This document shows, one piece after another, positions 12,598 through 55,478 of a DNA stretch of 64,000 bases. Source of the stretch: Catenulispora sp. EB89 (GTDB lineage: Bacteria; Actinomycetota; Actinomycetes; Streptomycetales; Catenulisporaceae); assembly GCF_041261445.1 (NCBI RefSeq), contig NZ_JBGCCU010000010.1, positions 248,001 through 312,000 on the forward strand, given 5' to 3'. The position numbers and the translations under genes were made by a program. Position 1 is the stretch's first letter. Every line of letters starts with the position of its first letter. The notes under the pieces are model-generated. The model saw nothing but the letters and a program-made list of their open reading frames with translations, searched no databases and was not told where the DNA came from.

Positions 12598-13317
12598 ATG
12601 GCAAAACTCCTCCCCACGTTCAACCGCCGGAGCGTGCTCGCCCTCACCGCGCTGCCCGCCGCGGTGGCGACCGTCGCGCTGGCGGCCGGCCCCGCGCAGG
12701 CGGCCACGTGGTCCTCCTCGGACAAGTTCGCGTCGTGGAACAACAACGGCTACACGCTCTACAACGACGTGTGGGGCGGCGGCGCCGGGCCGCAGACGAT
12801 CTGGGCGAACTCCGCCAGCAACTGGGGCGTGTGGTCGAACCAGCCCAACACCGGCGGCATCAAGTCCTACCCCAACGTCAGCAAGTGGGTCGGCACGCCG
12901 ATCAACTCGCTGCACTCGGTCACGTCCGGCTACTCCGTCTCCGTGCCGTCCTCCGGCGCGTTCGAGAGCGCGTACGACATCTGGGACTCGTCGAACGCGG
13001 ACGAGATCATGGTGTGGCTCAACAAAACCGGCGCCATCGGCCCGATCGGCTCCTACGTCACCAACGTCTCGGTCGGCGGCTACAACTTCAACGTGTACAA
13101 GGGCTGGAACGGCTCCAACAACGTCTACTCCTTCCTCAACACCGGCTACTCCACCTCCGGCACGGTCGACATCCTCGCCGTCCTGAAGTGGCTGGAGAAC
13201 TCCCAGCACTGGATCGGCAACGTCACCCTCGGCAACGTGCAATTCGGCTGGGAGATCACCTCGTCGAGCGGCGGCATGAACTTCCAGGTGAACAACTACT
13301 GGGTGTCAGCTTCCTGA
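12598..13317 (+). CDS. Secreted GH12 beta-glucanase (endoglucanase/xyloglucanase)
   Basis: 239 residues. The signal peptide has paired arginines before the hydrophobic core (FNRRSVLALTALP, ending near AQA), so Tat export is possible. The rest is a single GH12 jelly roll: YNDVWGGG, the nucleophile region DEIMVWLN (Glu136) and the acid/base region FGWEITS (Glu219), with a retaining mechanism. There is no binding module. GH12 enzymes cut cellulose, xyloglucan or mixed-linkage glucan. CCGGAGG precedes the ATG. Regulation through the two TCGAAGCGCTTCGA sites is likely. The stop is 10 bases from the convergent GH27 gene. Confidence 0.93.
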   Translation: MAKLLPTFNRRSVLALTALPAAVATVALAAGPAQAATWSSSDKFASWNNNGYTLYNDVWGGGAGPQTIWANSASNWGVWSNQPNTGGIKSYPNVSKWVGTPINSLHSVTSGYSVSVPSSGAFESAYDIWDSSNADEIMVWLNKTGAIGPIGSYVTNVSVGGYNFNVYKGWNGSNNVYSFLNTGYSTSGTVDILAVLKWLENSQHWIGNVTLGNVQFGWEITSSSGGMNFQVNNYWVSAS

Positions 13318-13327
13318 GACATCCCAC

Positions 13328-39017: not shown

Positions 39018-39401
39018 GTGCCGAGCATCGAAGTGGACTTCTCGGGCCTGCCGGCCGGCCGCGCGCTGTCGCTGGCCGAGACCGTGCGCCGCTGCGTCGT
39101 CACCGCACTGCCGGACGTCGCGGCGGTGTGCAGCTGCCGGGCCCGGCCGTGTGTGGCGGCCCGGCCCGGCGGCTCGACCCGGCCGGCGGCCTGGATCGGC
39201 GTCTCGCTGTTCCCGGGCCGCACCCTGGAATGGAAGCGCACCCTGTACCGGGCGCTGGTGGACGCCTGCGCCGAGGCCGGGATCGGCGGCGACGCGGTGA
39301 GCATCACCGTGCGCGAGCCGGCGTTGGAGAACTGGGGGATCCGCGGCGGGATACCCGGCGTGGACGTGTTCGAACCGAGCTCTGGAAGGGCGGGACCATG
39401 A
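39018..39401 (+). CDS. Tautomerase-superfamily protein (4-oxalocrotonate tautomerase-like)
   Basis: 127 residues; GTG start followed at once by a proline codon, giving the N-terminal Pro that serves as general base after Met removal. The C-terminal part (RTLYRALVDACAEAGIGGDAVSITVREPALENWGIRGG, read in parts) matches the tautomerase family. An internal Cys-rich stretch (CSCRARPC) is unusual. The stop overlaps the cupin gene start (ATGA). Confidence 0.78.
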   Translation: MPSIEVDFSGLPAGRALSLAETVRRCVVTALPDVAAVCSCRARPCVAARPGGSTRPAAWIGVSLFPGRTLEWKRTLYRALVDACAEAGIGGDAVSITVREPALENWGIRGGIPGVDVFEPSSGRAGP

Positions 39402-39823
39402 CTGTCACTGCGGGGGGACGCATCCGCGTCGGGGATGTCAGCGGCTGGGTCCGCACCGACCCCGACGCGCCGTTCAACATCATCGAGTTCTCCCTCGTGC
39501 CCGGCGGCGCGCCGTCGCCGCGGCACGTCCACGACCGGATCTTCGAAGCCGACTACGTCCTGGCGGGCCGGGTCCTGGCCAGGGTGGGCACCGAGACCGA
39601 GGTCGTCGAGGCCGGGGCGTTCGTCCCGGTGCGGCCGGGGACGCCGCACAGCCTCGTCGCGCACGACGGCCCGGCGCGCATCCTCGCCGTGCACTTCCCC
39701 GGCGCGGACGCGCTCGCGATGTTCGAGACGCTGGGGCGGGCGTTCGACGAGCGTCCGAGCCCTGAGGAACTGGCCAAGCACCTGGCGGGCCTGGACATCC
39801 GGTTCGTCGGGGAAGAGGGGTGA
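39398..39823 (+). CDS. Cupin-domain protein
   Basis: 141 residues forming a single cupin: [19 protein letters not shown] (motif 1 with metal-binding His-x-His and Glu) and [22 protein letters not shown] (motif 2 with His). It may be a small isomerase, dioxygenase or binding protein; nothing decides. It overlaps both neighbours by four bases. Confidence 0.85.
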
Positions 39824-43136: not shown

Positions 43137-44321
43137 ATGACTCGAAACGACAAGTCGCCGATCGGCGCGTGGCTCGTGGGCTCGCGAGGCTCGATCGCCA
43201 CGACCGTGGTCTCCGGCGCGGCCGCCATCACGGCCGGCACCGCCGGCGCCGTCGGCTGCGTCACCGAACTGGCCGACTTCGCCTCCGCCGGGCTCGTCCC
43301 GCTGGACCGGCTGGTGTTCGGCGGCTGCGACGTGGTCACCACGCCGCTGCGCAAACGCGCCGAGCAGCTGGCGTCCGCCGGGGTGATCCCGGCGCACGTC
43401 GGCGCCGCGGTCGGGGACGCCCTGGACCGCGCAGAGAACGAGATGATCACCATCGCGGGCCCCGGGACCGGTGTCCCGCAGCGGGTCCGCGCGGACTGCC
43501 TGATCAAGGCGCTGGCCGACTTCCAGGCCCGCACCGGCTGCGAGCAGGTGGTCGTGGTGAACGTCGCCTCCACCGAGCCCACCCCCGATTCCGATCCGGC
43601 CTACCAGAGCCTCCAGGCGCTGGAAGCAGCCCTGGACACCCGTCCCGACGTCCTCCCGCCGAGTTCCCTCGCGGCTTACGCCGCCTTCCGCAGCGGACAT
43701 CCCTTCGTCGACTTCACCCCGTCGGTCGGCGCCCGCCTGCCGGCCCTGGACGAGTTGGCCCGCCAGGCGAACCTGCCCTATGCGGGCAATGACGGCAAGA
43801 CAGGCGAAACCCTGGTGAAGTCGGTGCTCGCGCCGATGTTCGCCTACCGGGGCCTGGACGTGCGGTCCTGGTACAGCGCCAACATCCTCGGCGGCGGCGA
43901 CGGCGCCACCCTGTCCGACTCCGAGGCCTGCGACACCAAGATCCGGTCCAAGGCCTCCTCGCTGTCCAAGCTCCTGGGCTACGCCCCGGAGAGCACCGTG
44001 CGGATCGACTACGTCGCCGACATGGGCGACTGGAAGACCGCCTGGAACCACGTCGCCTTCCAGGGCTTCCTCGGCGTGCAGATGAAGCTCCAGTTCACCT
44101 GGCAGGGTTGCGACTCGGCGCTGGCCGCCCCGCTCATCCTGGACCTGGTCCGGCTCGCCGCCTTCGCCCAGCAGCGCGGCGAATCGGGTCCGCTGTCGGA
44201 GTTCGGCTTCTTCTTCAAGGACCCGGTCGGCGACGGCGACGACAGCCGGCTGTCGGGCCAGTACGACCGCCTCAGGGCGTGGGTCGCGGGCACGCCGGCC
44301 CCGGCCGGGACCGCGTCGTGA
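43137..44321 (+). CDS. ino1: Inositol-3-phosphate synthase (myo-inositol-1-phosphate synthase)
   Basis: 394 residues. It cyclises glucose 6-phosphate to inositol 3-phosphate with NAD. Features: GSRGSIATTVVSGAAAI (Rossmann loop), VVVVNVASTEP, FVDFTPSVGARLPAL, GNDGKTGETLVKSVLAPMF, and the Asn-Ile-Leu-Gly-Gly-Gly-Asp-Gly region, all standard. As the first gene of a co-directional operon of about 12.3 kb with EboC/A/B/E-like genes, it probably supplies the cyclitol, taking the place of the EboD sugar-phosphate cyclase of other ebo clusters. The stop overlaps the next start (GTGA). Confidence 0.93.
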   Translation: MTRNDKSPIGAWLVGSRGSIATTVVSGAAAITAGTAGAVGCVTELADFASAGLVPLDRLVFGGCDVVTTPLRKRAEQLASAGVIPAHVGAAVGDALDRAENEMITIAGPGTGVPQRVRADCLIKALADFQARTGCEQVVVVNVASTEPTPDSDPAYQSLQALEAALDTRPDVLPPSSLAAYAAFRSGHPFVDFTPSVGARLPALDELARQANLPYAGNDGKTGETLVKSVLAPMFAYRGLDVRSWYSANILGGGDGATLSDSEACDTKIRSKASSLSKLLGYAPESTVRIDYVADMGDWKTAWNHVAFQGFLGVQMKLQFTWQGCDSALAAPLILDLVRLAAFAQQRGESGPLSEFGFFFKDPVGDGDDSRLSGQYDRLRAWVAGTPAPAGTAS

Positions 44322-45211
44322 GCCGCCTGGGCACCCGCCGCGACGATCTGCGGGCGCTGACAGAACTGATCCGCGCCCCCGCCGCGCTGTCCGTCCCCGG
44401 CGACGTGATCGCCGGGGCGGCGGCCGCCGGCTGGCCGCTGGGCCGGACCCGCACCGCCGGGGTCGCCGCGTCGTCCGTCCTTCTCTACTGGGCCGGCATG
44501 GCGCTCAACGACTACGCCGACCGGGAGATCGACGCCAAGGAACGCCCGAACCGGCCGATCCCGTCCGGGCGGATCAGCCCGCAGACCGCGCTGCGGGTGG
44601 CCCAGTCGCTGACCGTCGGCGGCCTGGCGGTCTCGGCCCTGGCCGCGGGGCGCCGCGGGCTCGGCGTCTCGGTCCCGCTGGCCGCCGGCGTCTGGGCCTA
44701 CGACACCGTCTTCAAGGGCACCCCGGCCGGCGCCGCGTCGATGGCGCTGGCCCGCGGGCTGAACGTGCTGGCCGGGGCCGGGATCGGCGGCGTGCGCAAG
44801 GCCGCCGTGCCGGCCGGGGTCGTGGCCGCGCACACCATGACCCTGATGGCCCTGTCGGCCAAGGAGGTCGACGGCTCCGACCCGGCGCTGCCGGCCGTCA
44901 CGCTCGCGGCGACCTCCGCCGTGGGCACCGCGGCCGCGCTGCTGCCGGGCCGCTCGCCGCGCGGCCGGGACAAGGCGGCGGCCGCCGCCGCGGCCGCCGG
45001 CTACGTCGCGATCTTCGGCCGCGCGCAGGCCAAGGCGGTGCGCAAGCCCACCGCCAAGAACCTGCAGAAGGCGGTCGGCGCGGGCATCATGAGCCTGATT
45101 CCGCTGCAGTCGGCGCTGTCCGGCAAGGCCGGCGCGCTCAAGCCGATGGGCCCGCTGCTGGCCGCGCTTCCGGTGGGCCGGATGTTGGGCCGGAAGGTGG
45201 CCACGACATGA
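44318..45211 (+). CDS. eboC: EboC-like UbiA prenyltransferase
   Basis: 297 residues from GTG 44318. A multi-helix membrane protein with the first Asp-rich motif N64-DYADREID-72 and the following ERPNRPIPSGRISP; the second motif is reduced to YDTVFKG with MALARGLNVLAG, as in the SCO/EboC-type branch rather than quinone-type UbiA. It should transfer a polyprenyl group to a polar acceptor; with inositol-phosphate synthase upstream and a prenyl synthase downstream, an inositol-derived acceptor is the inference. Confidence 0.85.
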   Translation: MSRLGTRRDDLRALTELIRAPAALSVPGDVIAGAAAAGWPLGRTRTAGVAASSVLLYWAGMALNDYADREIDAKERPNRPIPSGRISPQTALRVAQSLTVGGLAVSALAAGRRGLGVSVPLAAGVWAYDTVFKGTPAGAASMALARGLNVLAGAGIGGVRKAAVPAGVVAAHTMTLMALSAKEVDGSDPALPAVTLAATSAVGTAAALLPGRSPRGRDKAAAAAAAAGYVAIFGRAQAKAVRKPTAKNLQKAVGAGIMSLIPLQSALSGKAGALKPMGPLLAALPVGRMLGRKVATT

Positions 45212-46872
45212 GCGACGGCAGCGGACCAGGCCCGGCGGTGCCCGACGGGGTGCTGTGGGGCTACGGCACCAACGGCTTCGGGAACCACCGCCTCGAAGAC
45301 GCCCTGCGGATCATCGCCGACCTCGGATACCGCGGCGTGGCCCTGACCCTGGACAACCACCACCTCGACCCGTTCGCCCCGGACGCGTCCGCCCGGGTCG
45401 GTCAGGTGGCGGCCCTGCTGGACCGCCTGAATCTGGCCGTCGTGATCGAAACCGGCGCGCGCTACCTGCTCGATCCGCGGCGCAAGCACCAGCCGTCGCT
45501 CGTCTCGCCCGAGGCCGAGCGCCGTCTGCGCCTGATGGACCGGGCCTGCGCCATCGCCGGGGATCTGAATGCCCAAGCCGTCTCGTTCTGGAGCGGCGTC
45601 GACCACGACGACGATCCGGACGCGGCCTGGGACCGGATGCGCGAGAACACGGCGCGGGTCGTGGAGTACGCCGACACCTACGGGGTCACGCTCGGCCTGG
45701 AGCCCGAGCCGGGCATGGTCGTGCAGACCCTGGACGACTACGACGCGCTGCTGCTCGACCTGGGCTGCCCGCCGCGGCTGGGGCTGACGCTGGACATCGG
45801 CCACTGCCGCGCGGTCGAGGAGCAGCCGGTGCCCGAGTGCGTCCTGCGGGCCGGGCCCCGGCTGGTCAACGTGCAGATCGACGACATGGTGCGCGGCGTG
45901 CACGAGCACCTGGAGTTCGGGGTCGGCGAGATCGACTTCCCGCCGGTGATCGCCGCGCTGATCGACTCCGGATACACCGGCCTGGTCGGGGTCGAGCTGC
46001 CCCGGCACGGCCACGCCGCCCCGGACGTCGCGCGCCGCTCGCTGGAGTTCCTGCGCGCGGCGACACCGGCCCCGCCGGCTTCGCAGGCTCCGACGATGCC
46101 TACGCCGCCCCCGATGCCCACGCCGCCCACGACGGGGACGATGTCGGCCGAGACGCTGCGCCGCGAACTCGAACCACACCTGGACGCCCGAGCCGCGGCC
46201 TGGCTCGACACGGCGGTGACCGAGATCGCCGCCGACCCGGACCGCTGCGCCGTGCACAGCGCCGGGGCGGCCCGGCGCTGCGGCCGCGGCCCGCTGACCG
46301 CACGCTGGAACGTCGACGAGGCGGTCAGGGCTCTGCTGCTCCACGCCGTCCCGGCCGAACGCCGCGCCGAAGTCCTGTGGGACGTCTACACCCGCGGCGA
46401 CCCGGCCGAGCGCCGCGCCGCCCTCAAAGCCCTGCCCCTGCTCCTCGGCCTGGCCGCGGGCAGCGGCCGGGCGCTGGTCGAGGACGCGCTGCGCACCAAC
46501 GACGCGACCCTGATCACGGCGGCGCTCGGCCCGTACGCCGCCGCGCACCTGGAGCCGGACGCGCTGCGCCAGGCGGTGCTCAAGTGCGCCTTCCTGTCGG
46601 TGCCGTTCACCGCGGTGCCCGAGGTGATCGCGCTGGCCGACGCAGAGCTCGCCGCGCTGCTGTCCGACTACGCCCGCGAGCGCGTCCTGGCCGGCCGCGA
46701 CGTCGACGACCAGATCCTCGACCTGATCGCCGCGCTCCCCAGCCGGGCCCGCACGGACCTGTCCACGCAGCTGGCCGACCTGGTCCGCGAGCCCGACGAG
46801 CGGGCCCGCTTCCGGTCCGAGGCGGCCCGCCGCGCCGCCGACCGCCTGGCGGCCGGCGCCGGGACTTCCTAG
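45208..46872 (+). CDS. eboA: Fusion of a sugar-phosphate isomerase-like TIM barrel with EboA
   Basis: 554 residues. Residues ~12-285 are a xylose-isomerase/AP-endonuclease-2-like barrel (LWGYGTNGFGNHRLEDALRII, GLEPEPGMV, LTLDIGHC, HLEFGVGEIDFPPV, VGVELPRH) with metal-binding Glu, Asp, His and Glu. A Pro/Thr linker (TPPPMPTPP) leads to an EboA domain, ~310-545 (WNVDEAVRALLLHAVP, LRTNDATLITAALGPYAAAHL, RQAVLKCAFLSVP, DYARERVLAGR). Fusion to EboA suggests the barrel works on the ebo metabolite. ATGA overlap with eboC. Confidence 0.83.
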   Translation: MSDGSGPGPAVPDGVLWGYGTNGFGNHRLEDALRIIADLGYRGVALTLDNHHLDPFAPDASARVGQVAALLDRLNLAVVIETGARYLLDPRRKHQPSLVSPEAERRLRLMDRACAIAGDLNAQAVSFWSGVDHDDDPDAAWDRMRENTARVVEYADTYGVTLGLEPEPGMVVQTLDDYDALLLDLGCPPRLGLTLDIGHCRAVEEQPVPECVLRAGPRLVNVQIDDMVRGVHEHLEFGVGEIDFPPVIAALIDSGYTGLVGVELPRHGHAAPDVARRSLEFLRAATPAPPASQAPTMPTPPPMPTPPTTGTMSAETLRRELEPHLDARAAAWLDTAVTEIAADPDRCAVHSAGAARRCGRGPLTARWNVDEAVRALLLHAVPAERRAEVLWDVYTRGDPAERRAALKALPLLLGLAAGSGRALVEDALRTNDATLITAALGPYAAAHLEPDALRQAVLKCAFLSVPFTAVPEVIALADAELAALLSDYARERVLAGRDVDDQILDLIAALPSRARTDLSTQLADLVREPDERARFRSEAARRAADRLAAGAGTS

Positions 46873-46885
46873 AAGGAGACGAACC

Positions 46886-47746
46886 ATGCGCGTCTTCGAT
46901 CCACACATCCACATGACCTCCCGCACCACCGCCGACTACCAGGTGATGGCCGACGCCGGGGTGGCCGCGATCGTCGAGCCCGCGTTCTGGCTCGGCCAGC
47001 CCCGGACCTCCGCGGAGACCTTCCTCGACTACTTCGACAGCCTGCTGGGCTGGGAGCCCTACCGGGCCGCGCAGTTCGGCATCACACACTTCTGCGCCAT
47101 CGCCCTGAACCCCAAGGAGGCCAACGACCCCCGCTGCCGCGCCGTCCTGGACCTGCTGCCGCGCTACCTGGAGAAGGACCGGGTGGTCGCGGTCGGCGAG
47201 GTCGGCCTGGACAGCGGCACGGCCGACGAGGAGAAGGTGCTGCTGGCCCAGCTGCACCTCGCCGCCGAGCACGGCCTGCCGGTCGTGGTCCACACCCCGC
47301 ACCGGGACAAGGCCGCCGGGACCCGCCGGATCGTGGAGCTGGTCGCCGCCTCCGGCCTGCCGCCGGAGCACGTGGTGATCGACCACCTCAACGAGATGAC
47401 CGTGGCCATGGTCAAGGACAGCGGCAGCTGGTGCGGCTTCACCATCTATCCGAACACGAAGATGGACCCGGCCCGGATGGCGCTGATCGCCGCCGACCAC
47501 GGCCTGGACAAGGTGCTGATCAACTCCGCGGCCGACTGGGGCGTCAGCGACCCGCTGTCGACCGTGGCCACCGCCGCGGCGCTGTCCGGCGCCGGCTTCG
47601 ACGACGCCGAGATCGCCCGCACCTTCTGGGACAACCCGGTCGCCTTCTACGGGCAGAGCGGCCGCCTGGTCTTCGACGACGCGGCCCTGGCCGACGCCCG
47701 CGACCAGGACTTCGGCGGCAACACCGTGGCCCGAGGGGAGAAGTGA
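46886..47746 (+). CDS. eboB: EboB-like TatD-type metal-dependent hydrolase
   Basis: 286 residues with AGAAGGAGA before the ATG. Metal motif DPHIHM at the start, then EPAFWLGQPRTSAETFLDYF, ALNPKEANDPR, EVGLDSGTADEEKVLLAQL, VHTPHRDKAAGT, DHLNEMT and NSAADWGVSDPL: these are the special features of the Ebo branch of the TatD family rather than of the DNase TatD. A hydrolytic step on the cluster metabolite is likely; substrate unknown. Confidence 0.88.
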   Translation: MRVFDPHIHMTSRTTADYQVMADAGVAAIVEPAFWLGQPRTSAETFLDYFDSLLGWEPYRAAQFGITHFCAIALNPKEANDPRCRAVLDLLPRYLEKDRVVAVGEVGLDSGTADEEKVLLAQLHLAAEHGLPVVVHTPHRDKAAGTRRIVELVAASGLPPEHVVIDHLNEMTVAMVKDSGSWCGFTIYPNTKMDPARMALIAADHGLDKVLINSAADWGVSDPLSTVATAAALSGAGFDDAEIARTFWDNPVAFYGQSGRLVFDDAALADARDQDFGGNTVARGEK

Positions 47747-48906
47747 GGGGCGTGCACTTCTCCCATCCCGACGGTGCGGACGTGCTGCTCAGCTACTGCA
47801 CCAACGTCCACCCCGCGCAGGACGTGGCCGGGGTGGTGGCCCAGCTGGACCGCTACGCCGCCCCGATCCGCCGCCGCCTCGGCTGGCCCCGCCTGTGGCT
47901 GCCGGCCTCGGCCGCGGCGGTGCTGGCCGCCGACCCCGTCGCCCTGGCCGCCTTCGGCAGGGAACTGAACGCGCGCGACCTGTTCGTCGTCACCGTCAAC
48001 GGCTTCCCGTACGGCGACTTCCACGGCGAGCGGGTCAAGAAGCTGGTGTACCGGCCCGACTGGTCCGATCCGCGACGGCTCGCCTACACCCTGGACCTGG
48101 CCCGGATCCTGGCGGCGCTGCTGCCCGGGGACGTCACCGAGGGGACCATCAGCACCCTGCCTCTGGGCTGGCGCGACGGCTGGAGCGACGAGCACCACGC
48201 GGCGGCCCTGGGCCATCTGTCCGATCTGGCGCGCGAGCTGCGCCACCTGCGGCGGCAGACCGGCCGGAACATCCGGGTCGGTCTGGAGCCCGAACCCGGC
48301 TGCGTCATCGAGACCTGCGACGACCTGGCCCGGGCGGCGCTGCCGGCGGAGATCGGCGACCACGTCGGCCTGTGCCTGGACACCTGCCACCTGGCCGTGG
48401 GCTTCAGCGACACCGGCCACTTCCTGAACGCGGCCGCCGAGGCCGGGCTCAGCGTCGTCAAGGTGCAGGCGGCGTGCGCGCTCCAGGCCGACCGGCCCGC
48501 CGACGGCACGGCCCGCGAGGCCCTGCGCTCGCTGGCCGAGCCCCGCTATCTGCATCAGGTGCGGCGGCGGCGCGCGGACGGCGGCCTGGACGGCGTCGAC
48601 GACCTTCCGGACGCGGCCCGCACGCTGGCCGCCGACGAACCCTGGCGCGTCCACTTCCACGCCCCCGTGCACCGGACGCACGTCGGCGCGCTGCGCACCA
48701 CCCAGCCCGAACTCGCCGACGCGCTCGCCGGCTTGTTCGGCGGGCCGCACCCGGCCACCCGGCACCTGGAGGTCGAGACCTACACCTGGGACGTGCTGCC
48801 CGGAGCCGGCGGCGAGGCGGACCTCGTCGCGGGCATCGCCGGCGAGCTGTCCTGGACGGCGGGCCGGCTGACCTCACTCGGATTGAAGGGGGAGACACAG
48901 ACATGA
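47743..48906 (+). CDS. eboE: EboE-like protein (TIM-barrel, metabolite traffic)
   Basis: 387 residues from GTG 47743 overlapping the eboB stop. LLSYCTNVHPAQDVAGVVAQL, FVVTVNGFPYGDFHGERVKKLVYRPDW, TISTLPLGWRDGW, RVGLEPEPGCVIET and LCLDTCHLAVGF match the EboE family, whose name comes from export phenotypes of ebo mutants, not from a known reaction. It has a sugar-isomerase-like barrel and no membrane segment. ATGA overlap downstream. Confidence 0.87.
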   Translation: MRGVHFSHPDGADVLLSYCTNVHPAQDVAGVVAQLDRYAAPIRRRLGWPRLWLPASAAAVLAADPVALAAFGRELNARDLFVVTVNGFPYGDFHGERVKKLVYRPDWSDPRRLAYTLDLARILAALLPGDVTEGTISTLPLGWRDGWSDEHHAAALGHLSDLARELRHLRRQTGRNIRVGLEPEPGCVIETCDDLARAALPAEIGDHVGLCLDTCHLAVGFSDTGHFLNAAAEAGLSVVKVQAACALQADRPADGTAREALRSLAEPRYLHQVRRRRADGGLDGVDDLPDAARTLAADEPWRVHFHAPVHRTHVGALRTTQPELADALAGLFGGPHPATRHLEVETYTWDVLPGAGGEADLVAGIAGELSWTAGRLTSLGLKGETQT

Positions 48907-50312
48907 GCACGGGAAAGAGCAACACCCTGAGCCGCGGCCGGGTCTACACGATCCTGGTCGTCGGGCTCACGCCGCGGCTGCTGCAGTTCATGCCGGCGCT
49001 GCGCAAGGTCGCCGAGAACGGCTTCGCGGCGAACCTGGACCCGGTGTTCCCGGCGGTCACCACGCCGGTGCAGTCCAGCATGCTGACCGGCCGCTACCCC
49101 GACGAGCACGGCATCGTCGGCAACGGCTGGTTCTTCCGCGACCTCGGCGAGGTCCACTTCTGGAAGCAGCACAACGCCCTGGTGTCCGGCGAGAAGGTCT
49201 GGCACGCCGCCCGCAAGGCCGATCCGGAGTTCACCGTCGGCAACATGTGCTGGTGGTACGCGATGGGCATGGAGATCGACTCGGTCCTCACACCGCGGCC
49301 GGTCTTCCACTACGACGGCTCCATCGAGCCCGACCTGTACACCCGGCCCGACGGGATGCGCGCGGACCTGCAGCGCCGGTTCGGCACCTTCCCGCTGGCC
49401 GAGTTCTGGAGTCCGCTGTCCAACATCAAGCCCAGCAAGTGGCTGGTGGCCGCCGCCCGGCACCAGCTGGACGAGGCGCCGCACGACCTGGACCTGCTGT
49501 ACATCCCGCACCTGGACTACGACCTCCAGCGCTACGGCGCCGACGGGCCCGAGGCCGTGCAGGCCGCCAAGGAGCTCGACACCGTCCTGGCCCCGCTGCT
49601 CAAGGACCTGGACGACCGCGGCTACCGGACCCTGATCGTCAGCGAGTACGGCCTGACCACCGTGGACCGGCCCATCGACATCAACCGCGCCCTGCGCCGC
49701 GCCGGACTGCTCAACGTCTACAGCCAGCACGGCATGGAGTACCTGGACCCGTGGACCTCCGCGGCGTTCGCCGTCTCCGACCACCAGGCCGCGCACGTCT
49801 ACATCAAGGACCCGGCCGCCCACCAGGAGACCGTGCGCGGCCTGATCGCCGAACTGCCCGGCGTCGACCAGGTCCTGGACCGCGAGCAGCAGGGCAAGTA
49901 CCGCATCGGGCACGCGCGGGCCGGCGAACTCGTCGCGGTCGCCGACCCGACGTCCTGGTTCACGTACTACTACTGGCTCGACGACGACCGGGCCCCGGAC
50001 TTCGCCCGCTGCATGGACTTCTTCAAGAAGCCCGGCTACGACCCGGCGGAGCTGTTCTTCGACCCCGACGACCGGTTCGTGAAGGTGCGCGCGGCGTACC
50101 AGCTGGCGCGGATGAAGCTGGGGATGCGCTCCGGCTTCAACGTCGTCCCGCTGGACCCGTCCTGCGTGCGCGGCAGCCACGGCCGGCTGCCCGACCGCGC
50201 CGAGGACGGCCCGATGGTGCTGTGCAGCGAGCCCGCCCTGGAGGCGAAGTCGTTCCACGCCACCGACGTCAAGTCCCTGATCCTGCGCACCGCGGGCCTG
50301 GAGGCGCTGTGA
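48903..50312 (+). CDS. AlkP-superfamily nucleotide pyrophosphatase/phosphodiesterase-like protein
   Basis: 469 residues from ATG 48903; no signal peptide. VVGLTPRLLQ, FPAVTTPVQSSMLTGRYPDEHGIVGNGWFFRDL, PHLDYDLQRYG, IVSEYGLTTV and VSDHQAAHVYI identify the branch of AlkP-type phosphodiesterases that accompanies ebo genes. The threonine in AVT is the expected nucleophile. In relatives I recall an Asp directly before VVGLTP that binds metal; here it is Leu (ILVVGL), which deserves a check. It may split a nucleotide or diphosphate from the product. GTGA overlap with the next gene. Confidence 0.8.
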   Translation: MSTGKSNTLSRGRVYTILVVGLTPRLLQFMPALRKVAENGFAANLDPVFPAVTTPVQSSMLTGRYPDEHGIVGNGWFFRDLGEVHFWKQHNALVSGEKVWHAARKADPEFTVGNMCWWYAMGMEIDSVLTPRPVFHYDGSIEPDLYTRPDGMRADLQRRFGTFPLAEFWSPLSNIKPSKWLVAAARHQLDEAPHDLDLLYIPHLDYDLQRYGADGPEAVQAAKELDTVLAPLLKDLDDRGYRTLIVSEYGLTTVDRPIDINRALRRAGLLNVYSQHGMEYLDPWTSAAFAVSDHQAAHVYIKDPAAHQETVRGLIAELPGVDQVLDREQQGKYRIGHARAGELVAVADPTSWFTYYYWLDDDRAPDFARCMDFFKKPGYDPAELFFDPDDRFVKVRAAYQLARMKLGMRSGFNVVPLDPSCVRGSHGRLPDRAEDGPMVLCSEPALEAKSFHATDVKSLILRTAGLEAL

Positions 50313-51367
50313 GCACCGTCTCGGGGCAGACCGCCACGCTCAGCCCGGACCAGGCGGCCACCATCCAGACCGATCTGGCCGAACGGCGCGCGCTGCTGCG
50401 CCGCGGCCTGCACGACGCGGTCGCCCGGCTGGGCGCCGACGTCCGGGCCATCGTGTCCTACCACCTGGGCTGGACCGACTCCGACGGCCGGCCGGCCAGC
50501 GCCGACTCCGGCAAGCTCCTGCGCGGCAGCATGGCCCTGCTCGGCGCCGAGGCCTTCGGCGCCACGCCGGAGGCCGGGCTTCCCGGCGCGGTCGCGGTGG
50601 AGCTGGTCCACAACTTCTCCCTGCTCCACGACGACATCATCGACCTGGACCGGGAGCGTCGGCACCGGCCGACCGCCTGGACCGTGTTCGGCGTCGGGCC
50701 GACGATCGTGGCCGGCGACGCGCTGCTGACGCTGGCGGTGCACACGGTGCTCGAAGCGCCCTCGCCGACCGCCGCCGAGGCCGCCTCGGTGCTGCTGTCG
50801 GCCACCGTCGCGATGATCGACGGCCAGGCCCTGGACCTGAGCTACCAGGTCCGTCGGGACGTGACCACCGGCGAGGTGGGCGCGATGTCGGAGAAGAAGA
50901 CCGGGGCGCTGCTGGGCTGCGCGGCGGCGATCGGCGCGGTGCTGGCCGGCGCCGACCGGCCGGCGTGGGAGGAGATGCGCGAGTTCGGGACCCGGCTGGG
51001 CGTGGCGTTCCAGGCCGTCGACGACGTGCTGGGCACCTGGGGCGATCCGCTGGTGACCGGCAAGGACGTGGGCAGCGACCTGCGCCGCCGCAAGCTCACC
51101 CTGCCGCTGGCCGCCGCGCTGGCGGCCGAGGGCGAGCACGCCGAGGAACTGCGGGCCCTGATGAACGCGGCCAGCGACCTCGAACCCTGGTACGTGCGGC
51201 GGGCGACGGCGCTGTTGGACGCCTGCGGCGCCCGCGGCTGGACCGAGGAGCACGCCCGCGAGCAGTTCGGGGTGGCCGTGGCCGCCCTGGACCGGGCCGG
51301 TGTCGTGGGACGTCCGCGCGAACTGCTGCACGGCATAGCCGCCTTCTCGGTCTGGCGCGCTTATTGA
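50309..51367 (+). CDS. Polyprenyl diphosphate synthase (GGPP synthase-like)
   Basis: 352 residues from GTG 50309. First Asp-rich motif D108-D-I-I-D112, then the arginine region RRHRPTAW, the KTGALLGCAA segment and the second motif D238-DVLGTWGD-246, all features of trans-prenyl synthases of the actinobacterial GGPP-synthase-like branch. The residues before the first motif (Phe-Ser-Leu-Leu-His) set chain length, but I cannot predict it. It elongates the IPP/DMAPP made by the MEP enzymes for EboC. Confidence 0.92.
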   Translation: MSTVSGQTATLSPDQAATIQTDLAERRALLRRGLHDAVARLGADVRAIVSYHLGWTDSDGRPASADSGKLLRGSMALLGAEAFGATPEAGLPGAVAVELVHNFSLLHDDIIDLDRERRHRPTAWTVFGVGPTIVAGDALLTLAVHTVLEAPSPTAAEAASVLLSATVAMIDGQALDLSYQVRRDVTTGEVGAMSEKKTGALLGCAAAIGAVLAGADRPAWEEMREFGTRLGVAFQAVDDVLGTWGDPLVTGKDVGSDLRRRKLTLPLAAALAAEGEHAEELRALMNAASDLEPWYVRRATALLDACGARGWTEEHAREQFGVAVAALDRAGVVGRPRELLHGIAAFSVWRAY

Positions 51368-51408
51368 TCACCCCCGCTCACCGACACACCAAAGTACGGA
51401 GCTGACTC

Positions 51409-53565
51409 ATGGATCTTCTCGCCCGGTGGTGCCACCAGCACCGCCGCCTCGTCCTCGTCTTCTGGCTCGTGGGCATCCTCGCGGTATTCGGACTGGGACA
51501 GGCGGTGAAACCGCACTACCGGGCCGGGGACCTGCTGCCCGGGACCGGCTCCCGGCAGGCCGCCGACGTGCTGGCCTCCGGGTTCCCGGCGCAGGCCGGG
51601 GACGAGGACGTCATCGTGATCTCGGTGGCCGCCGGCAGCGTGCGCGACCCCGACGTGCGGGCGCCGATGACGGCGATGCTCGGCCGGGTCGCGGCGCTGC
51701 CGCACGTGCGCGACGTGCAGAGCCCGTACACGCCCGGCGGCGCGGCGGACGTCAGCGCGAACGGCCGGGTGGCCTACGCGAACATCACCTTCGACCAGCC
51801 GGTCGACACCCTGCCGACCTCGGCGGTGAAGAAGGTGGTGGACACCGCGACCGCGGCCGGCGACGCGCGGGTCCGCGTGAACGCCGGCGGCAACGCGGTG
51901 TCGCAGGCCACGATGACGGTCGACACCACGGTCAGCGAGATCGTCGGGGTGCTGGCGGCGATGCTGATCCTGTTGTTCGCCTTCCGCTCCCTGGTGTCCG
52001 CCACGCTGCCGCTGATCTCGGCGCTGGTCTCGCTGCTGCCCTCGATCGCGCTGATCGGCATGGTCTCGCGGGCGCTGGTGGTGCCGAGCTTCGCCTCCAG
52101 CCTCACGATCCTGTTGAACCTGGGGGTCGGCATCGACTACGCGCTCTTCCTGGTCACCAGGCAACGCAGGGGACTGTTGGAGGGGGAGACGCCGCAGGAC
52201 GCGATCGTCAGCACCATGCGGACGGCCGGCCGCTCGGTCCTGTACGCCGGGCTCGTGGTGTGCCTGGCGCTGCTCAGCCTGATGGGCATGGGGATCGGCT
52301 ACCTGTCCGGGATGGGCGCCGCGGCCGCGATCGGCATCGCGTTCACCGCCCTGGCCGCCCTGACCCTGACGCCGGCGCTGCTCGGCTTCTTCGGGGACAA
52401 GGTCTTCAGCCGCCGGGAGCGGCACCGGATGGCGCAGGGCATCCAGCCGCTGGACGTCACCAGCCCCGGCTGGGCGCGCTGGGCGCGGGTGGTCCAGGGC
52501 CGGCCCGCGGCCTTCGCCGCGCTGTCCGCGCTGATCATCGTGGTGCTGGCGCTGCCGGTGTTCTCGATCCGGCTCGGGGCCAGCGACCAGGGCAACGACC
52601 CGACCTCCAGCACCACCCGGCGGGCCTACGACGACCTGGCCGCCGGATTCGGGCCCGGGTTCAACGGGCCCTTGTTCATCGTCGTGCAGGGCGCCTCGGC
52701 CCCGGCGGCGGCCACCGCCGTCGCCTCGGCCGTGGCGGCCACGCCGGGCGTCACCTCGGTGCGTCCGCCGCAGCTCGCGCCGTCCGGGCAGGTGGGGCTG
52801 ATCGAGGCGTTCCCGACCGCCGCGCCGCAGTCCCAGGCCACGGTCGACCTGGTCGGGAAGCTGCGGGCCAGTGTTCTGCCGCACGCGGTGGCCGGGACCG
52901 GTGCCGCGGTCTACGTCGGCGGCTTCACCGCGACCCAGATCGACTTCACGCACGCGGTCGGCACCAAGCTGCCGATCTTCATCGTCATCGTCGCGCTGTT
53001 CGGCGCGGTGCTGGTCACCGTGGCCTTCCGCAGCCTGTTCATCGCCGGGCTCACCGCGGTGATGAACCTGCTCGCGGTCGGCGTCTGCTTCGGCATCATC
53101 ACCGCGATCTTCAACTGGGGCTGGGCCGGCAGCCTGCTGGGCCTGGGCCGGCCCGGGCCGATCGACGCGTTCCTGCCGGTGTTCCTGTTCTCCATCCTGT
53201 TCGGCCTGTCGATGGACTACCAGGTGTTCCTCATCGGCCGGATCCACGACGGCTGGCACCGCACCGGGCGGGCGCGCGAGGCGGTGGCGGCCGGCCAGAC
53301 CGAGACCGGCCGGGTGATCACCGCGGCGGCCGGCGTCATGGTGCTGGTGTTCCTGTCCTTCGCCACCGGCAACCGGCTGGAGACGCTGTTCGGCATCGGG
53401 CTCGGCGCGACCGTGCTGCTCGACGCCTTCGTGATCCGGACGATGCTGGTCCCGGCGATCCTGCACCTGGCGGGGTCCCGCGCGTGGTGGGCCCCGCGCT
53501 GGCTGGCGCGGACGCCGAGCACGCGCCCGGAGAGCGACCACGAACCCGAGGGGGCTTATCAATGA
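51409..53565 (+). CDS. MMPL/RND-family membrane transporter
   Basis: 718 residues with about 11-12 membrane helices and two large extracytoplasmic loops (~35-185 and ~390-520). VGIDYALFLVTRQRRGLLEGETPQDAI and FGLSMDYQVFLIGRIHDGW are the paired Asp-Tyr motifs of MMPL proteins, which use proton flow to export lipids. Placed between a prenyl synthase and dxs, it is the likely exporter of the cluster's prenyl-lipid. The stop overlaps dxs (ATGA). Confidence 0.93.
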   Translation: MDLLARWCHQHRRLVLVFWLVGILAVFGLGQAVKPHYRAGDLLPGTGSRQAADVLASGFPAQAGDEDVIVISVAAGSVRDPDVRAPMTAMLGRVAALPHVRDVQSPYTPGGAADVSANGRVAYANITFDQPVDTLPTSAVKKVVDTATAAGDARVRVNAGGNAVSQATMTVDTTVSEIVGVLAAMLILLFAFRSLVSATLPLISALVSLLPSIALIGMVSRALVVPSFASSLTILLNLGVGIDYALFLVTRQRRGLLEGETPQDAIVSTMRTAGRSVLYAGLVVCLALLSLMGMGIGYLSGMGAAAAIGIAFTALAALTLTPALLGFFGDKVFSRRERHRMAQGIQPLDVTSPGWARWARVVQGRPAAFAALSALIIVVLALPVFSIRLGASDQGNDPTSSTTRRAYDDLAAGFGPGFNGPLFIVVQGASAPAAATAVASAVAATPGVTSVRPPQLAPSGQVGLIEAFPTAAPQSQATVDLVGKLRASVLPHAVAGTGAAVYVGGFTATQIDFTHAVGTKLPIFIVIVALFGAVLVTVAFRSLFIAGLTAVMNLLAVGVCFGIITAIFNWGWAGSLLGLGRPGPIDAFLPVFLFSILFGLSMDYQVFLIGRIHDGWHRTGRAREAVAAGQTETGRVITAAAGVMVLVFLSFATGNRLETLFGIGLGATVLLDAFVIRTMLVPAILHLAGSRAWWAPRWLARTPSTRPESDHEPEGAYQ

Positions 53566-55478
53566 CCACTGTCACGACACCGGACACAACTCCGGAGGCG
53601 ACTTCGGAGACTTCTTCGGAGACGAGGGCGTTCTTCGACAGCCCCGCCGACCTCAGGGAGCTGTCCTCCGAGGAGCTGACCGAGGCGGCCCGGCAGATCC
53701 GCCGCTTCCTGGTCGACACGGTGTCCGCCACCGGCGGGCACCTGGGCTCCAACCTCGGCGCGGTCGAGCTGACGCTCGCGCTGCACCGGGTCTACGACTC
53801 GCCGCGGGACGCGGTGCTGTGGGACACCGGCCACCAGGCCTACGTCCACAAGCTCGTCACCGGGCGCGGTCCGCGGTTCAGCACGCTGCGGCAGGCCGGC
53901 GGCGTGTCCGGCTACCCGAACCGGGCCGAGTCGCCGCACGACTGGATCGAGAACAGCCACGCCTCGACCGCCACCGCCTACGCGCACGGCCTGGCGCAGG
54001 CCTTCGCCTCGCGCGGGGAGCGGCGGCGGGTGGTGGCGGTGGTCGGCGACGGCTCGCTGACCGGCGGCATGGCCTTCGAAGGGCTCAACAACCTCGGCCG
54101 CAGCGGGCTGCACGCCGTCGTCGTGCTCAACGACAACGGCCGCTCCTACGCCCCGACCGCCTCGCGGCTCCAGGAGCGGCTGCGGGGGAGTGTGAGCTCC
54201 AAGCTGCACGACCTGGAGGCGCGGCAGATGGCGGCGCTGCTCGGCCGGGACGGCACCGGGCCGGCCGGCGCGGAGCTGCACGCGATGTATCTGGCGCTCG
54301 GCGGGGCCCCGCGCCCGGAGTCCTTCTTCCACTCGCTCGGCCTGGCCTACATCGGCCCGGTCGACGGGCATTCGGTGCCGGAGGTGGAGCGCGCGCTGCG
54401 CGAGGCCGAAGCGGTCGCCGGGCCGGTCGTGGTGCACGTGGTGACGCGCAAGGGCCGCGGCTACTCCTTCGCCGAGGACGACGAGGAGAAGTGCCTGCAC
54501 GACGTCTCGGTGTTCGATCCGGTGGCCGGGCCCGCGGCCTCCGTCCCGGGCGGCTATACCGGCGCCTTCGCCAGGACCCTGATAGAGCTGGCCGAGCAGG
54601 ACGAGCGGATCCACGCCCTCACGGCGGCGATGCCCGGCCCCACCGGCCTGCTGGCCTTCCAGGCCCGCTTCCCGGACCGGTTCCACGACGTCGGGATCGC
54701 CGAGCAGCACGCGGTGGCGATGGCCGGAGCGCTGGCGATGGGTGGCCTGCGGCCGGTGGTCGCGGTCTACTCCACGTTCCTGTCGCGCGCCTTCGACCAG
54801 CTGATGCTGGATGTCGGCCTGCACGGCCAGCCGGTGGTGTTCGCCCTGGACCGGGCCGGGATCACCGGCGACGACGGCCCGAGCCACCACGGGGTCTCGG
54901 ACCTGGCGTTGTGTTCGCTGGTGCCGGGGATGACGGTGCTGGCGCCGGCCACGCCCGACGAGCTCTCGGGCATGCTTCGATACGCGCTGACCCTGCCGGG
55001 CCCCTCGGCGATCCGGTGGCCGAAGGGCACGCCGGTTGACGTCCCGGGTGCTCCGGGCGTGGGCGGTGGGGCGCGGCTGCTGTGGCCGGCGGCCGACCCC
55101 GAGCGGGCCGTCGCGGTGCTCGCGGTCGGGCGGATGTGCGCGGCGGCGCTGGGCGCGGCCGAGCTGGCCGCGGCTTCGGGCGCGGACGTCGCGGTGTGGG
55201 ACGTGCGCTGCGTCAAGCCGCTGGACGAGCGGATGCTGGAGGCCGCGGCGGTCCATCGTGCCGTGGTGACGGTCGAGGACGGGTTCGCCGTGGGCGGAGC
55301 CGGTTCGGCGATCGCCGCCGCGCTGGCCGCGCGGCGTCCGGGCTCTGCGGCGCCGACGCTTTTGGGCGTGCCCGACCGCTATCTGGCGCACGGGAAGCCC
55401 GACGCGGTGCTGGCCGGGATCGGGTTGGACGCCGAGGGGATCGCGGCGGCCGTGCTCGCGGCGGCGCGGCGGTCCTGA
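53562..55478 (+). CDS. dxs: 1-deoxy-D-xylulose 5-phosphate synthase
   Basis: 638 residues. It condenses pyruvate and glyceraldehyde 3-phosphate with thiamine diphosphate, the entry to the MEP pathway. ThDP motif GDGSLTGGMAFEGLNN, HLGSNLGAVEL, DTGHQAYVHK, VGIAEQHAV and DGPSHHG are present. The first ~25 residues are a Thr/Glu/Ser-rich extension. Being in this operon, it should raise IPP supply when the cluster is on. A terminator follows. Confidence 0.96.
   Translation: MTTVTTPDTTPEATSETSSETRAFFDSPADLRELSSEELTEAARQIRRFLVDTVSATGGHLGSNLGAVELTLALHRVYDSPRDAVLWDTGHQAYVHKLVTGRGPRFSTLRQAGGVSGYPNRAESPHDWIENSHASTATAYAHGLAQAFASRGERRRVVAVVGDGSLTGGMAFEGLNNLGRSGLHAVVVLNDNGRSYAPTASRLQERLRGSVSSKLHDLEARQMAALLGRDGTGPAGAELHAMYLALGGAPRPESFFHSLGLAYIGPVDGHSVPEVERALREAEAVAGPVVVHVVTRKGRGYSFAEDDEEKCLHDVSVFDPVAGPAASVPGGYTGAFARTLIELAEQDERIHALTAAMPGPTGLLAFQARFPDRFHDVGIAEQHAVAMAGALAMGGLRPVVAVYSTFLSRAFDQLMLDVGLHGQPVVFALDRAGITGDDGPSHHGVSDLALCSLVPGMTVLAPATPDELSGMLRYALTLPGPSAIRWPKGTPVDVPGAPGVGGGARLLWPAADPERAVAVLAVGRMCAAALGAAELAAASGADVAVWDVRCVKPLDERMLEAAAVHRAVVTVEDGFAVGGAGSAIAAALAARRPGSAAPTLLGVPDRYLAHGKPDAVLAGIGLDAEGIAAAVLAAARRS

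What the first reader, a model, noticed from the sequence alone, without database searches (positions are those of the whole stretch)
43137..53565. Ebo-like cluster in which inositol-phosphate synthase stands in for EboD
EboC, EboA, EboB and EboE homologues lie in a tight operon, but the dehydroquinate-synthase-like EboD cyclase is absent and ino1 leads the operon instead. Both enzymes are NAD-dependent sugar-phosphate cyclases, so the cluster probably uses an inositol as the cyclitol acceptor for a prenyl group. ebo clusters are known for exporting an unidentified metabolite; this version would predict its chemistry: a prenylated inositol.
Basis: partly seen in the sequence, partly recalled or inferred. 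Interest (0 to 1): 0.85.

Follow-up and report, generated by a model that had tools for sequence, protein, structure and literature searches.

The report
Inositol-synthase variant of the ebo operon
A widespread but uncharacterised bacterial gene set that probably builds a lipid-linked ring sugar has, in actinobacteria, exchanged its usual ring-making enzyme for an inositol-making one, which predicts that the unknown product contains inositol.

Summary
ispG, ispH, dxr and a ferredoxin lie beside it, so it carries isoprenoid-supply genes. No eboD was found: the genome's single DHQ-synthase match is aroB.

This is a type, not an oddity. Of 20 ebo loci fetched from a survey of 396 genomes of the phylum, 17 carry ino1, 1 eboD, 2 neither. 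Of 116 grouped loci none has both cyclases; ino1 comes with an extra TIM barrel (23 of 23). One tree split separates the types. In 150 genomes of another genus of the order, EboE and Ino1x occur together in 100, one alone in 8, neither in 42.

Five catalytic residues of archaeal inositol-phosphate synthase are invariant, and EboC models closest to an archaeal lipid prenyltransferase. A prenylated inositol (phosphate) is the best prediction but unproven: a 12-locus sub-clade lacks ino1, and an EboC of an eboD-type cluster farnesylates quinolines in vitro. Secreted-looking sugar-dehydrogenase-like proteins sit beside these operons in 15 of 21 genomes.

The parts
43137..44321 (+). ino1x: myo-inositol-1-phosphate synthase closest to the archaeal type; leads the operon in place of eboD
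   Evidence: PF07994 135.6 and PF01658 113.5 bits, over cut-off; best solved relative A. fulgidus MIPS 1u1i, 246 bits; catalytic N/K/K/K/K invariant in 15 of 15
44318..45211 (+). eboC: UbiA-superfamily prenyltransferase, SCO3242 family
   Evidence: NF045897 338 bits, over its cut-off of 260; AF2 model pLDDT 87.9, best PDB matches digeranylgeranylglyceryl phosphate synthase 7bpu/6m31, TM about 0.6
45208..46872 (+). TIMx-eboA fusion: xylose-isomerase-like TIM barrel (N-terminal) joined to an EboA domain (C-terminal); start may be 45208 or 45238
   Evidence: PF01261 147.6 bits and NF035938 121 bits over cut-off; fused also in L133 and L044
46886..47746 (+). eboB: TatD-like metal-dependent hydrolase
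   Evidence: PF01026, over cut-off; PDB relative 3guw
47752..48906 (+). eboE: TIM-barrel metabolite-traffic protein
   Evidence: NF035939 403 bits, over its cut-off of 250
48903..50312 (+). eboF: type I phosphodiesterase/nucleotide pyrophosphatase superfamily
   Evidence: PF01663 201.8 bits on the longer frame; relatives follow eboE in other ebo loci
50309..51367 (+). short-chain polyprenyl diphosphate synthase (C15-C20, probably C20; chain length inferred)
   Evidence: PF00348 170 bits on the longer frame; NF041169 358 bits and NF045549 GGPP synthase 259 bits, both below cut-off; FARM HNFSLLHDDIID
51409..53565 (+). MMPL-family RND exporter
   Evidence: PF03176 258 bits; seen beside ebo only here and in L133 among the loci
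53562..55478 (+). dxs paralogue (1-deoxy-D-xylulose-5-phosphate synthase), last gene of the operon
   Evidence: PF13292 314 bits; one of three strong Dxs matches in the genome
39829..40992 (+). ispG (GcpE)
   Evidence: PF04551 487 bits; syntenic in L133
40985..42409 (+). ispH (LytB) paralogue
   Evidence: PF02401 307 bits; one of two copies in the genome
42406..42900 (+). small protein between ispH and ino1, unknown
   Evidence: PF03447 weak; syntenic in L133
36770..38071 (-). dxr (DXP reductoisomerase); start uncertain
   Evidence: PF08436, PF13288 and PF02670
55566..56258 (-). TetR regulator next to the operon
   Evidence: PF00440; syntenic in L133
56424..56762 (+). 4Fe-4S dicluster ferredoxin, possible electron donor for IspG/IspH (inferred)
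   Evidence: PF12838 and others; syntenic in L133

Best explanation
This is an ebo operon of a distinct actinobacterial type in which a myo-inositol-phosphate synthase, together with an extra xylose-isomerase-like TIM barrel, takes the place of the sugar-phosphate cyclase EboD. Proposed route: Ino1x cyclises glucose-6-phosphate to inositol-1-phosphate; the TIM barrels (TIMx-EboA, EboE) and the TatD protein (EboB) modify the cyclitol; the membrane prenyltransferase EboC joins a C15-C20 prenyl chain to a hydroxyl of the cyclitol or its phosphate, by chemistry like that of archaeal digeranylgeranylglyceryl-phosphate synthase; EboF removes or cleaves a phosphate. The resulting prenyl-inositol lipid works at or beyond the membrane, as a carrier or partner for exported or secreted functions. 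In this strain the operon also brings isoprenoid-supply genes (dxs, a prenyl synthase, with ispG, ispH and dxr nearby) and an MMPL exporter. Shown by sequence: gene content, cyclase exclusivity in the loci sampled, conserved catalytic residues, a single split in the tree, purifying selection. Inferred: every reaction, their order, and the product.
For: Family assignments. No eboD in the genome. Ino1x in 17 of 20 phylum loci, order nearly constant. Cyclase exclusivity: Ino1x 23/23, 0/12 and 0/81, EboD 0/23, 0/12 and 75/81, in the three groups of 116 loci. Genome-level linkage in 150 genomes: both in 100, one in 8, neither in 42, Fisher P 7e-28. Tree: eboD side 24 rows, other side 35 rows, SH-aLRT 100. 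N255/K274/K278/K306/K367 equivalents invariant in 15/15. EboC first motif NDxxDxxxDxxERPxRPxPSG invariant at its key positions in 19 of 19, closest structures DGGGP synthase. A prenyl synthase stands beside 7 of 24 ino1-type loci, and an extra IspH and Dxs lie in the window's block. dN/dS 0.05-0.31.
Against: No metabolite or enzyme data. Twelve loci of one derived clade have no ino1 in the fetched stretch but keep the other ebo genes; two of their genomes (G473, G421) show no Ino1x match at all. Four eboD-group loci (L055, L074, L075, L105) show no cyclase within the flank. An EboC from an ebo cluster with eboD (UbiA-297) farnesylates quinolines in vitro, and no inositol-type acceptor is mentioned in the passages seen (PMC9235831). 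Two ebo-linked systems concern indole compounds: scytonemin, and the EDB cluster, said to contain a full ebo cluster, which gave indoles in E. coli (PMC6282210 and PMC9655573, passages). MIPS-fold enzymes can act on other sugar phosphates (6k96). 17 of 24 ino1-type loci show no adjacent prenyl synthase by phmmer.
Confidence: 0.5

Rival explanations
1. Ino1x makes a cyclitol other than myo-inositol-1-phosphate, or its inositol phosphate is so remodelled by TIMx/EboE (oxidation, epimerisation, dehydration) that the final head group is not an inositol; EboC then prenylates that product.
For: TIMx comes with Ino1x in 23 of 23 loci and was not found in 81 eboD-group loci. Its weak relatives are sugar epimerases and the inosose dehydratase IolE. 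6k96, a five-membered-cyclitol-phosphate synthase, is a distant MIPS relative. One locus has a GFO/IDH/MocA dehydrogenase just upstream of ino1 (L040; best model levoglucosan dehydrogenase, below cut-off, inositol 2-dehydrogenase weaker).
Against: The best solved relative by far is an inositol-phosphate synthase, with every mapped catalytic residue kept.
Confidence: 0.22
2. EboC acts on an aromatic acceptor, as UbiA-297 does in vitro, and the cyclitol branch (Ino1x or EboD, TIM proteins) makes a separate molecule, such as a carrier or activating group for an aromatic or indole cargo. (Odds raised from 0.13 to 0.15 on adding the EDB evidence.)
For: UbiA-297 farnesylates 8-hydroxyquinoline-2-carboxylic acid and quinaldic acid (PMC9235831, passages). 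In Nostoc the ebo genes are needed to bring the scytonemin monomer to the periplasm (PMC6282210, passages). The EDB cluster made indoles in E. coli (PMC9655573, passages; the original paper is not held).
Against: UbiA-297 was assayed with aromatic acceptors only, 6 of 14 accepted, phenols and catechols not (passages). EboC and ino1 overlap by 4 bases in the window. Nearest folds of EboC include the polyol-phosphate prenyltransferase DGGGP synthase.
Confidence: 0.15
3. The module serves sugar oxidation outside the cell: the ebo product is a lipid-linked partner of secreted glucose/sorbosone-dehydrogenase-like beta-propeller proteins, and the TIM barrels belong to keto-sugar metabolism.
For: A GSDH-family protein lies within the fetched flanks in 15 of 21 ino1-type genomes, expected about 0.25 under uniform placement of one 19-kb stretch per genome. 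Seven loci also show ThuA and 3-keto-disaccharide-hydrolase domains with strong GSDH.
Against: Absent from the fetched flanks in 6 of 21 genomes and not detected by phmmer in window 30001-64000. Among eboD-group loci phmmer finds GSDH in 3 of 81 and Pfam in 4 of 81 flank proteins, with about 8 GSDH matches per genome, a weak excess. Neighbourhood does not show joint function.
Confidence: 0.1
4. The ino1-ebo adjacency is a chance or lineage-local juxtaposition.
For: Operon boundaries are inferred from sequence only.
Against: The ino1-type set recurs in eight family codes of the phylum, and genome-level linkage gives Fisher P 7e-28 (genomes of one genus, not independent).
Confidence: 0.01

Closest known systems
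ebo operon, eboD type (eustigmatophyte plastids, Bacteroidota, Cyanobacteria; PMC5133447, PMC6282210)
   Same: [quoted passage not shown] EboC keeps the first Asp-rich motif, and the majority consensus of both types has a similar second motif (SRxEVxG), not universal in either set
   Different: EboD replaced by Ino1x plus an extra TIM barrel, sometimes fused to EboA; the window EboC scores over cut-off on the SCO3242 model and below cut-off on the EboC model
S. coelicolor SCO3242-SCO3243 (listed as CDA-cluster genes in PMC3610822, passages)
   Same: NCBIfam names the EboC family after SCO3242, and the paper lists SCO3243 as myo-inositol phosphate synthase, so the pair probably belongs to this operon type
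   Different: The S. coelicolor sequence was not fetched; the match of the whole operon is inferred. No function was found in print.
Archaeal myo-inositol-1-phosphate synthase (A. fulgidus, 1u1i and mutant entries)
   Same: Sequence similarity over the catalytic part and five mapped residues
   Different: Sits in an ebo operon next to a prenyltransferase; the genome has another PF01658 copy outside ebo
Archaeal digeranylgeranylglyceryl phosphate synthase (6m31, 7bpu)
   Same: UbiA fold; best structural match of the EboC model
   Different: TM-score only about 0.6, 17-18% identity; acceptor unknown for EboC
Scytonemin/ScyE system of Nostoc punctiforme
   Same: ebo and scyE mutants both stop before scytonemin, ScyE being periplasmic (PMC6282210, passages); two GSDH neighbours have sub-threshold ScyD/ScyE matches (20.5 bits for L034, 16.5 for L089, cut-off 80)
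   Different: eboD type, indole-derived cargo; scytonemin genes were not searched for in the window

Membership tests
ebo operon (sensu PMC5133447) | EboC UbiA-superfamily prenyltransferase | tested here: met
   Matches NF035940 below its cut-off (119.6 bits, cut-off 250) and the sister family NF045897 over it (338 bits, cut-off 260); motifs shared with eboD-type EboC. Met as homology, not as the EboC equivalog model.
ebo operon (sensu PMC5133447) | EboE TIM-barrel protein | tested here: met
   NF035939 403 bits, over cut-off 250
ebo operon (sensu PMC5133447) | EboA (or EboG) | tested here: met
   NF035938 domain model 121 bits over cut-off; NF035937 family model 61 bits, below its cut-off of 320
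ebo operon (sensu PMC5133447) | EboB TatD-like hydrolase and EboF phosphodiesterase-type hydrolase | tested here: met
   PF01026 and PF01663 over cut-off; homologues in eboD-type loci hit by phmmer
ebo operon (sensu PMC5133447) | EboD, DHQ-synthase-like sugar phosphate cyclase | tested here: not met
   The only PF01761 match in the genome is AroB
ebo operon (sensu PMC5133447) | role in precursor transport to the periplasm | not testable with these tools
   Reported for Nostoc (passages)
myo-inositol-1-phosphate synthase | catalytic Asn/Lys set of the archaeal enzyme | tested here: met
   N249, K268, K272, K300 and K361 invariant in 15 of 15
myo-inositol-1-phosphate synthase | conversion of glucose-6-phosphate to inositol-1-phosphate | not testable with these tools
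   no assay
mycothiol-type Ino1 (TIGR03450) | score over curated cut-off 638 | tested here: not met
   45.3 bits
UbiA prenyltransferase (DGGGP-synthase-like) | fold and first Asp-rich motif | tested here: met
family 2 encapsulin cargo polyprenyl transferase (NF041169) | score over curated cut-off 450 | tested here: not met
   357.8 bits; an encapsulin shell gene was not sought

The most novel reading that the evidence does not exclude
ebo systems of both types build a membrane lipid (prenyl-cyclitol) that is the dedicated partner (carrier, anchor or electron acceptor) of secreted beta-propeller oxidoreductases: GSDH/ThuA proteins in actinobacteria and some Bacteroidota, ScyE in scytonemin-making cyanobacteria. 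Actinobacteria exchanged the cyclitol head group (inositol for the EboD cyclitol) while keeping that role.
Probability: 0.15. Interest if true: 0.88.

Novelty: new variant of a known kind. Interest (0 to 1): 0.67.

Why it matters
In the papers found here the ebo product remains unknown although the operon is widespread. A natural experiment in which one cyclase is exchanged for another whose reaction is textbook knowledge turns an open question into a testable prediction: feed labelled inositol or glucose and look for a labelled prenyl lipid. It also suggests that the ino1/eboC genes listed with the CDA cluster of S. coelicolor (SCO3242, SCO3243) belong to an operon of this type instead. The repeated neighbourhood with secreted-looking sugar-dehydrogenase-like proteins gives a new lead on where the product acts.

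Tried and rejected
A viral-contig search with EboF (the query also held upstream residues of the same frame) confirmed no relative. EboD elsewhere in the genome: only AroB. Chance adjacency: rejected. Window prenyl synthase as encapsulin cargo: below cut-off, not pursued. A third cyclase in the ino1-less clade: genes upstream of eboC were read in L145, L148, L152, L154 and L028/L137; L148 and L152 share neighbours, and so do L154 and L028, but no gene is common to all and I recognised no cyclase; only two L154 genes were family-searched (an IMPase/HisN-like phosphatase, best model histidinol-phosphatase below cut-off, and an FAD oxidoreductase). EboA fold: confident model (pLDDT 93.3) but no PDB match with E <= 0.001; the best are armadillo-type designs. 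Ino1x in eboD-type genomes: 7 of 25 have a lower-scoring Ino1 homologue (226-268 bits, against 539-618 for the full-length matches), 2 a weak one, 16 none; none of 81 eboD-group loci has one within the fetched flank. Other phyla were sampled only through an alignment whose confirming row is an eboD-type EboE, 80 of 581 confirmed places kept, so ino1-type operons outside the phylum are not excluded. Papers: nothing on inositol in ebo operons in searches; the word inositol is absent from the main text of three ebo papers. The library holds only open-licence papers; PMC9328163 on the EDB cluster is not held.

Rows dropped: one search uses rows typed with at least about 350 bits, so 5 weak EboE rows and the weaker or fragmentary Ino1x rows were left out (at E <= 0.001 the tools count EboE in 107 and Ino1x in 108 of 150). 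Grouping left out L046 (broken EboE, neither cyclase), L147 and L156 (cut contigs), L157 (two merged clusters), L158 and L159 (Ino1x without EboE), and the window itself. The eboD group (81) includes 6 loci in which EboD did not reach the threshold: L078 and L113 have fragments, L055, L074, L075 and L105 none. Alignments used subsets: 15 Ino1x, 19 ino1-type or ino1-less EboC and 20 eboD-group EboC. The tree used 24 eboD-type loci, all with EboD. Flank proteins: 81 of the 115 listed were scanned.
Full report
What is there. The window belongs to an 11.9 Mb, 70-contig genome. From 43137 to 55478 nine genes run on the plus strand: ino1x, eboC, a TIM-barrel/EboA fusion, eboB, eboE, eboF, a polyprenyl synthase, an MMPL exporter and dxs; five of the eight junctions overlap by 4 bases if the fusion starts at 45208, the others have gaps of 5 to 41 bases. 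Upstream, on the same strand, lie ispG, ispH and a small unknown gene; dxr is on the other strand, and a TetR gene and a ferredoxin follow.

EboD is missing. The genome has one DHQ-synthase match, AroB with a dehydroquinase-like frame behind it. It has three PF01658 matches: one on contig C1 outside ebo (it reads like the mycothiol-type enzyme, recalled, not scanned), this one, and one in a second ebo operon of the same genome.

A conserved type. EboE was found in 19 of 396 genomes of the phylum, 18 over cut-off. Twenty loci were fetched (the window locus itself not counted): 17 have Ino1x, with the order Ino1x-EboC-TIMx-EboA-EboB-EboE-EboF; L031 has EboD instead; L028 and L046 have neither (in L041 the EboC position printed there comes from an overlong frame, the gene used later, 12680-13570, fits the order). 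The ino1 type is seen in eight family codes (f1, f2, f4, f7, f9, f17, f19, f32). In 14 genomes of the window's own family, its own included, 5 have EboE. One, G403, repeats the whole ispG-to-dxs block (L133); the 14 proteins compared are 87-99% identical with dN/dS 0.05-0.31. The other loci read in that genus (L132, L134-L136) have only the seven-gene core.

Mutual exclusion. A scan of named genomes with an eboD-type EboE as the confirming row gave 80 loci from Bacteroidota, Cyanobacteria, Chloroflexota, Acidobacteriota and others. Together with L031 they form a group of 81: EboD in 75, Ino1x in 0, TIMx in 0. The ino1 group of 23 has Ino1x 23, TIMx 23, EboD 0. A third group of 12 has TIMx 12, Ino1x 0, EboD 0. 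Groups were formed by content, so the informative numbers are the zeros for joint presence and the pairing of TIMx with the non-eboD loci. The named scan favours eboD-type loci by design. A quick tree of EboE plus EboF (59 rows, SH-aLRT only; 29 rows have an unusual letter make-up) puts all 24 eboD-type rows on one side of a fully supported branch and all 35 others on the other; the ino1-less loci are one derived clade inside the ino1 side. This fits one exchange of cyclase and a later loss of ino1 from a paralogous operon; direction is not rooted.

Prevalence. In 150 genomes of the genus of G107 (same order; probably Streptomyces, not told by the tool) EboE over 350 bits is in 104 and Ino1x over 348 bits in 104; both in 100, neither in 42 (Fisher P 7e-28; genomes of one genus are not independent). 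89 of 118 EboE genes have Ino1x upstream within 9 kb on the same strand (median 4.8 kb). Of the remaining 29, fourteen places (15 rows) and three stray Ino1x places were fetched: 11 are intact ino1-less operons, L147 and L156 are cut by contig ends, L157 holds two merged clusters. Fourteen rows were not followed in that step, one of which (G128) is L028, read before. With L028 the ino1-less set is 12; ten of their genomes have an Ino1x elsewhere, G473 and G421 none.

Chemistry from sequence. The closest solved relative of Ino1x is A. fulgidus inositol-phosphate synthase; N255, K274, K278, K306 and K367 (that they are catalytic is recalled; the printed alignments show three of them altered in mutant entries 3qvw, 3qvx and 3qw2) map to N249, K268, K272, K300 and K361, invariant in 15 of 15. 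EboC keeps the first Asp-rich motif. All 19 non-eboD EboC and all 20 eboD-group EboC match both NCBI models; best E-values are 1e-116 (SCO3242) against 4e-42 (EboC) in the first set and 1e-46 against 2e-128 in the second; single-protein ranks were shown only for the window (338 against 120 bits) and L031 (84 against 96). The EboC model (pLDDT 87.9) is closest to DGGGP synthase, which prenylates a hydroxyl of a phosphorylated polyol (recalled). TIMx and EboE are related TIM barrels (hhalign probability 95.8). The TIM-EboA fusion, noted for actinobacteria in PMC5133447 (passage), occurs in the window, L133 and L044. The window prenyl synthase has DDxxD with Phe five residues upstream, which suggests a C15-C20 product (rule recalled).

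Isoprenoid supply. The genome has two IspH and three strong Dxs. Among the 10 genomes of the genus, the two with the block have more than one IspH (2 in G000, 3 in G403); G402 also has extra matches, without an ebo locus; the other seven have one. By phmmer a prenyl synthase is near 7 of 24 ino1-type loci (queries included some of those loci's own genes) and 0 of 81 eboD-group loci.

Unexpected neighbour. Ino1-type loci recurrently sit beside a large protein with a GSDH domain, in seven loci together with ThuA and 3-keto-disaccharide-hydrolase domains; several N-termini look like signal peptides by eye (no predictor run). PF07995 counted in 21 ino1-type genomes lies within the fetched cluster flank in 15; uniform placement of one 19-kb stretch per genome predicts 0.25 (11 of 17 without the four same-genus relatives, expected 0.24; three genomes hold two ebo loci, so the expectation is slightly low). 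The window locus shows none; its genome counts through the second operon. For eboD-type loci the excess is weak: phmmer finds GSDH in 3 of 81 loci, Pfam in 4 of 81 flank proteins, where cytochrome c is commonest with 7, against about 8 GSDH matches per genome, for which I estimate by hand about 0.8 in 24 flanks. Two GSDH neighbours show sub-threshold matches to the ScyD/ScyE family, of interest because ScyE acts in the same pathway as ebo in Nostoc (PMC6282210, passages). This is a lead, not a result.

What is known. PMC5133447 proposed that ebo makes an isoprenoid-cyclitol compound; PMC6282210 showed that ebo genes are needed to move the scytonemin monomer to the periplasm; PMC9235831 showed quinoline farnesylation by an EboC; PMC9655573 reports indoles from the EDB cluster, said in PMC6282210 to contain a full ebo cluster (all passages). 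The first three do not contain the word inositol. The ino1 type, its exclusivity with eboD and its prevalence were not found in the searches named under Tried and rejected.

Verdict. Observation confirmed and extended; interpretation partly supported. The cyclase exchange is solid in the loci sampled; the prenyl-inositol product is the best prediction, at about even odds.

Noticed in passing
G000:C22:5134-12132 (locus L039): The same genome carries a second, seven-gene ino1-type ebo operon without the MEP genes, next to a GSDH protein.
   Followed up: yes
L030, L033, L034, L035, L036, L037, L040, L041, L043, L045 (strong); L039, L132, L134, L135, L136 (weak by phmmer): Secreted-looking GSDH proteins, in seven loci with ThuA and DUF1080 domains, recur beside ino1-type ebo operons.
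   Followed up: partly
A3 and A4 alignments (19 and 20 EboC sequences): Every EboC aligned ends in a threonine, across both types and several phyla.
   Followed up: no
L028, L145, L146, L148-L155, L161: A derived paralogous ebo operon in the G107 genus lacks ino1 but keeps TIMx and the rest; L028 and L154 have an IMPase/HisN-like gene and an FAD oxidoreductase upstream.
   Followed up: partly
L034:11699-12907 and relatives in L030, L032, L033, L035, L036, L037: A further xylose-isomerase-like TIM barrel gene follows eboF in seven loci of that genus.
   Followed up: no
L096:12600-16070 and L118:12721-16071: In two Flavobacteriaceae a ThuA-GSDH protein directly follows eboF on the same strand, in an eboD-type operon.
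   Followed up: partly
window 39018-39823: Tautomerase and cupin genes precede ispG and are syntenic in L133.
   Followed up: no
window 59711-62293: Large secreted-looking protein with repeated ricin-type-looking segments on the minus strand; not part of the operon (impression from the sequence, no family search).
   Followed up: no
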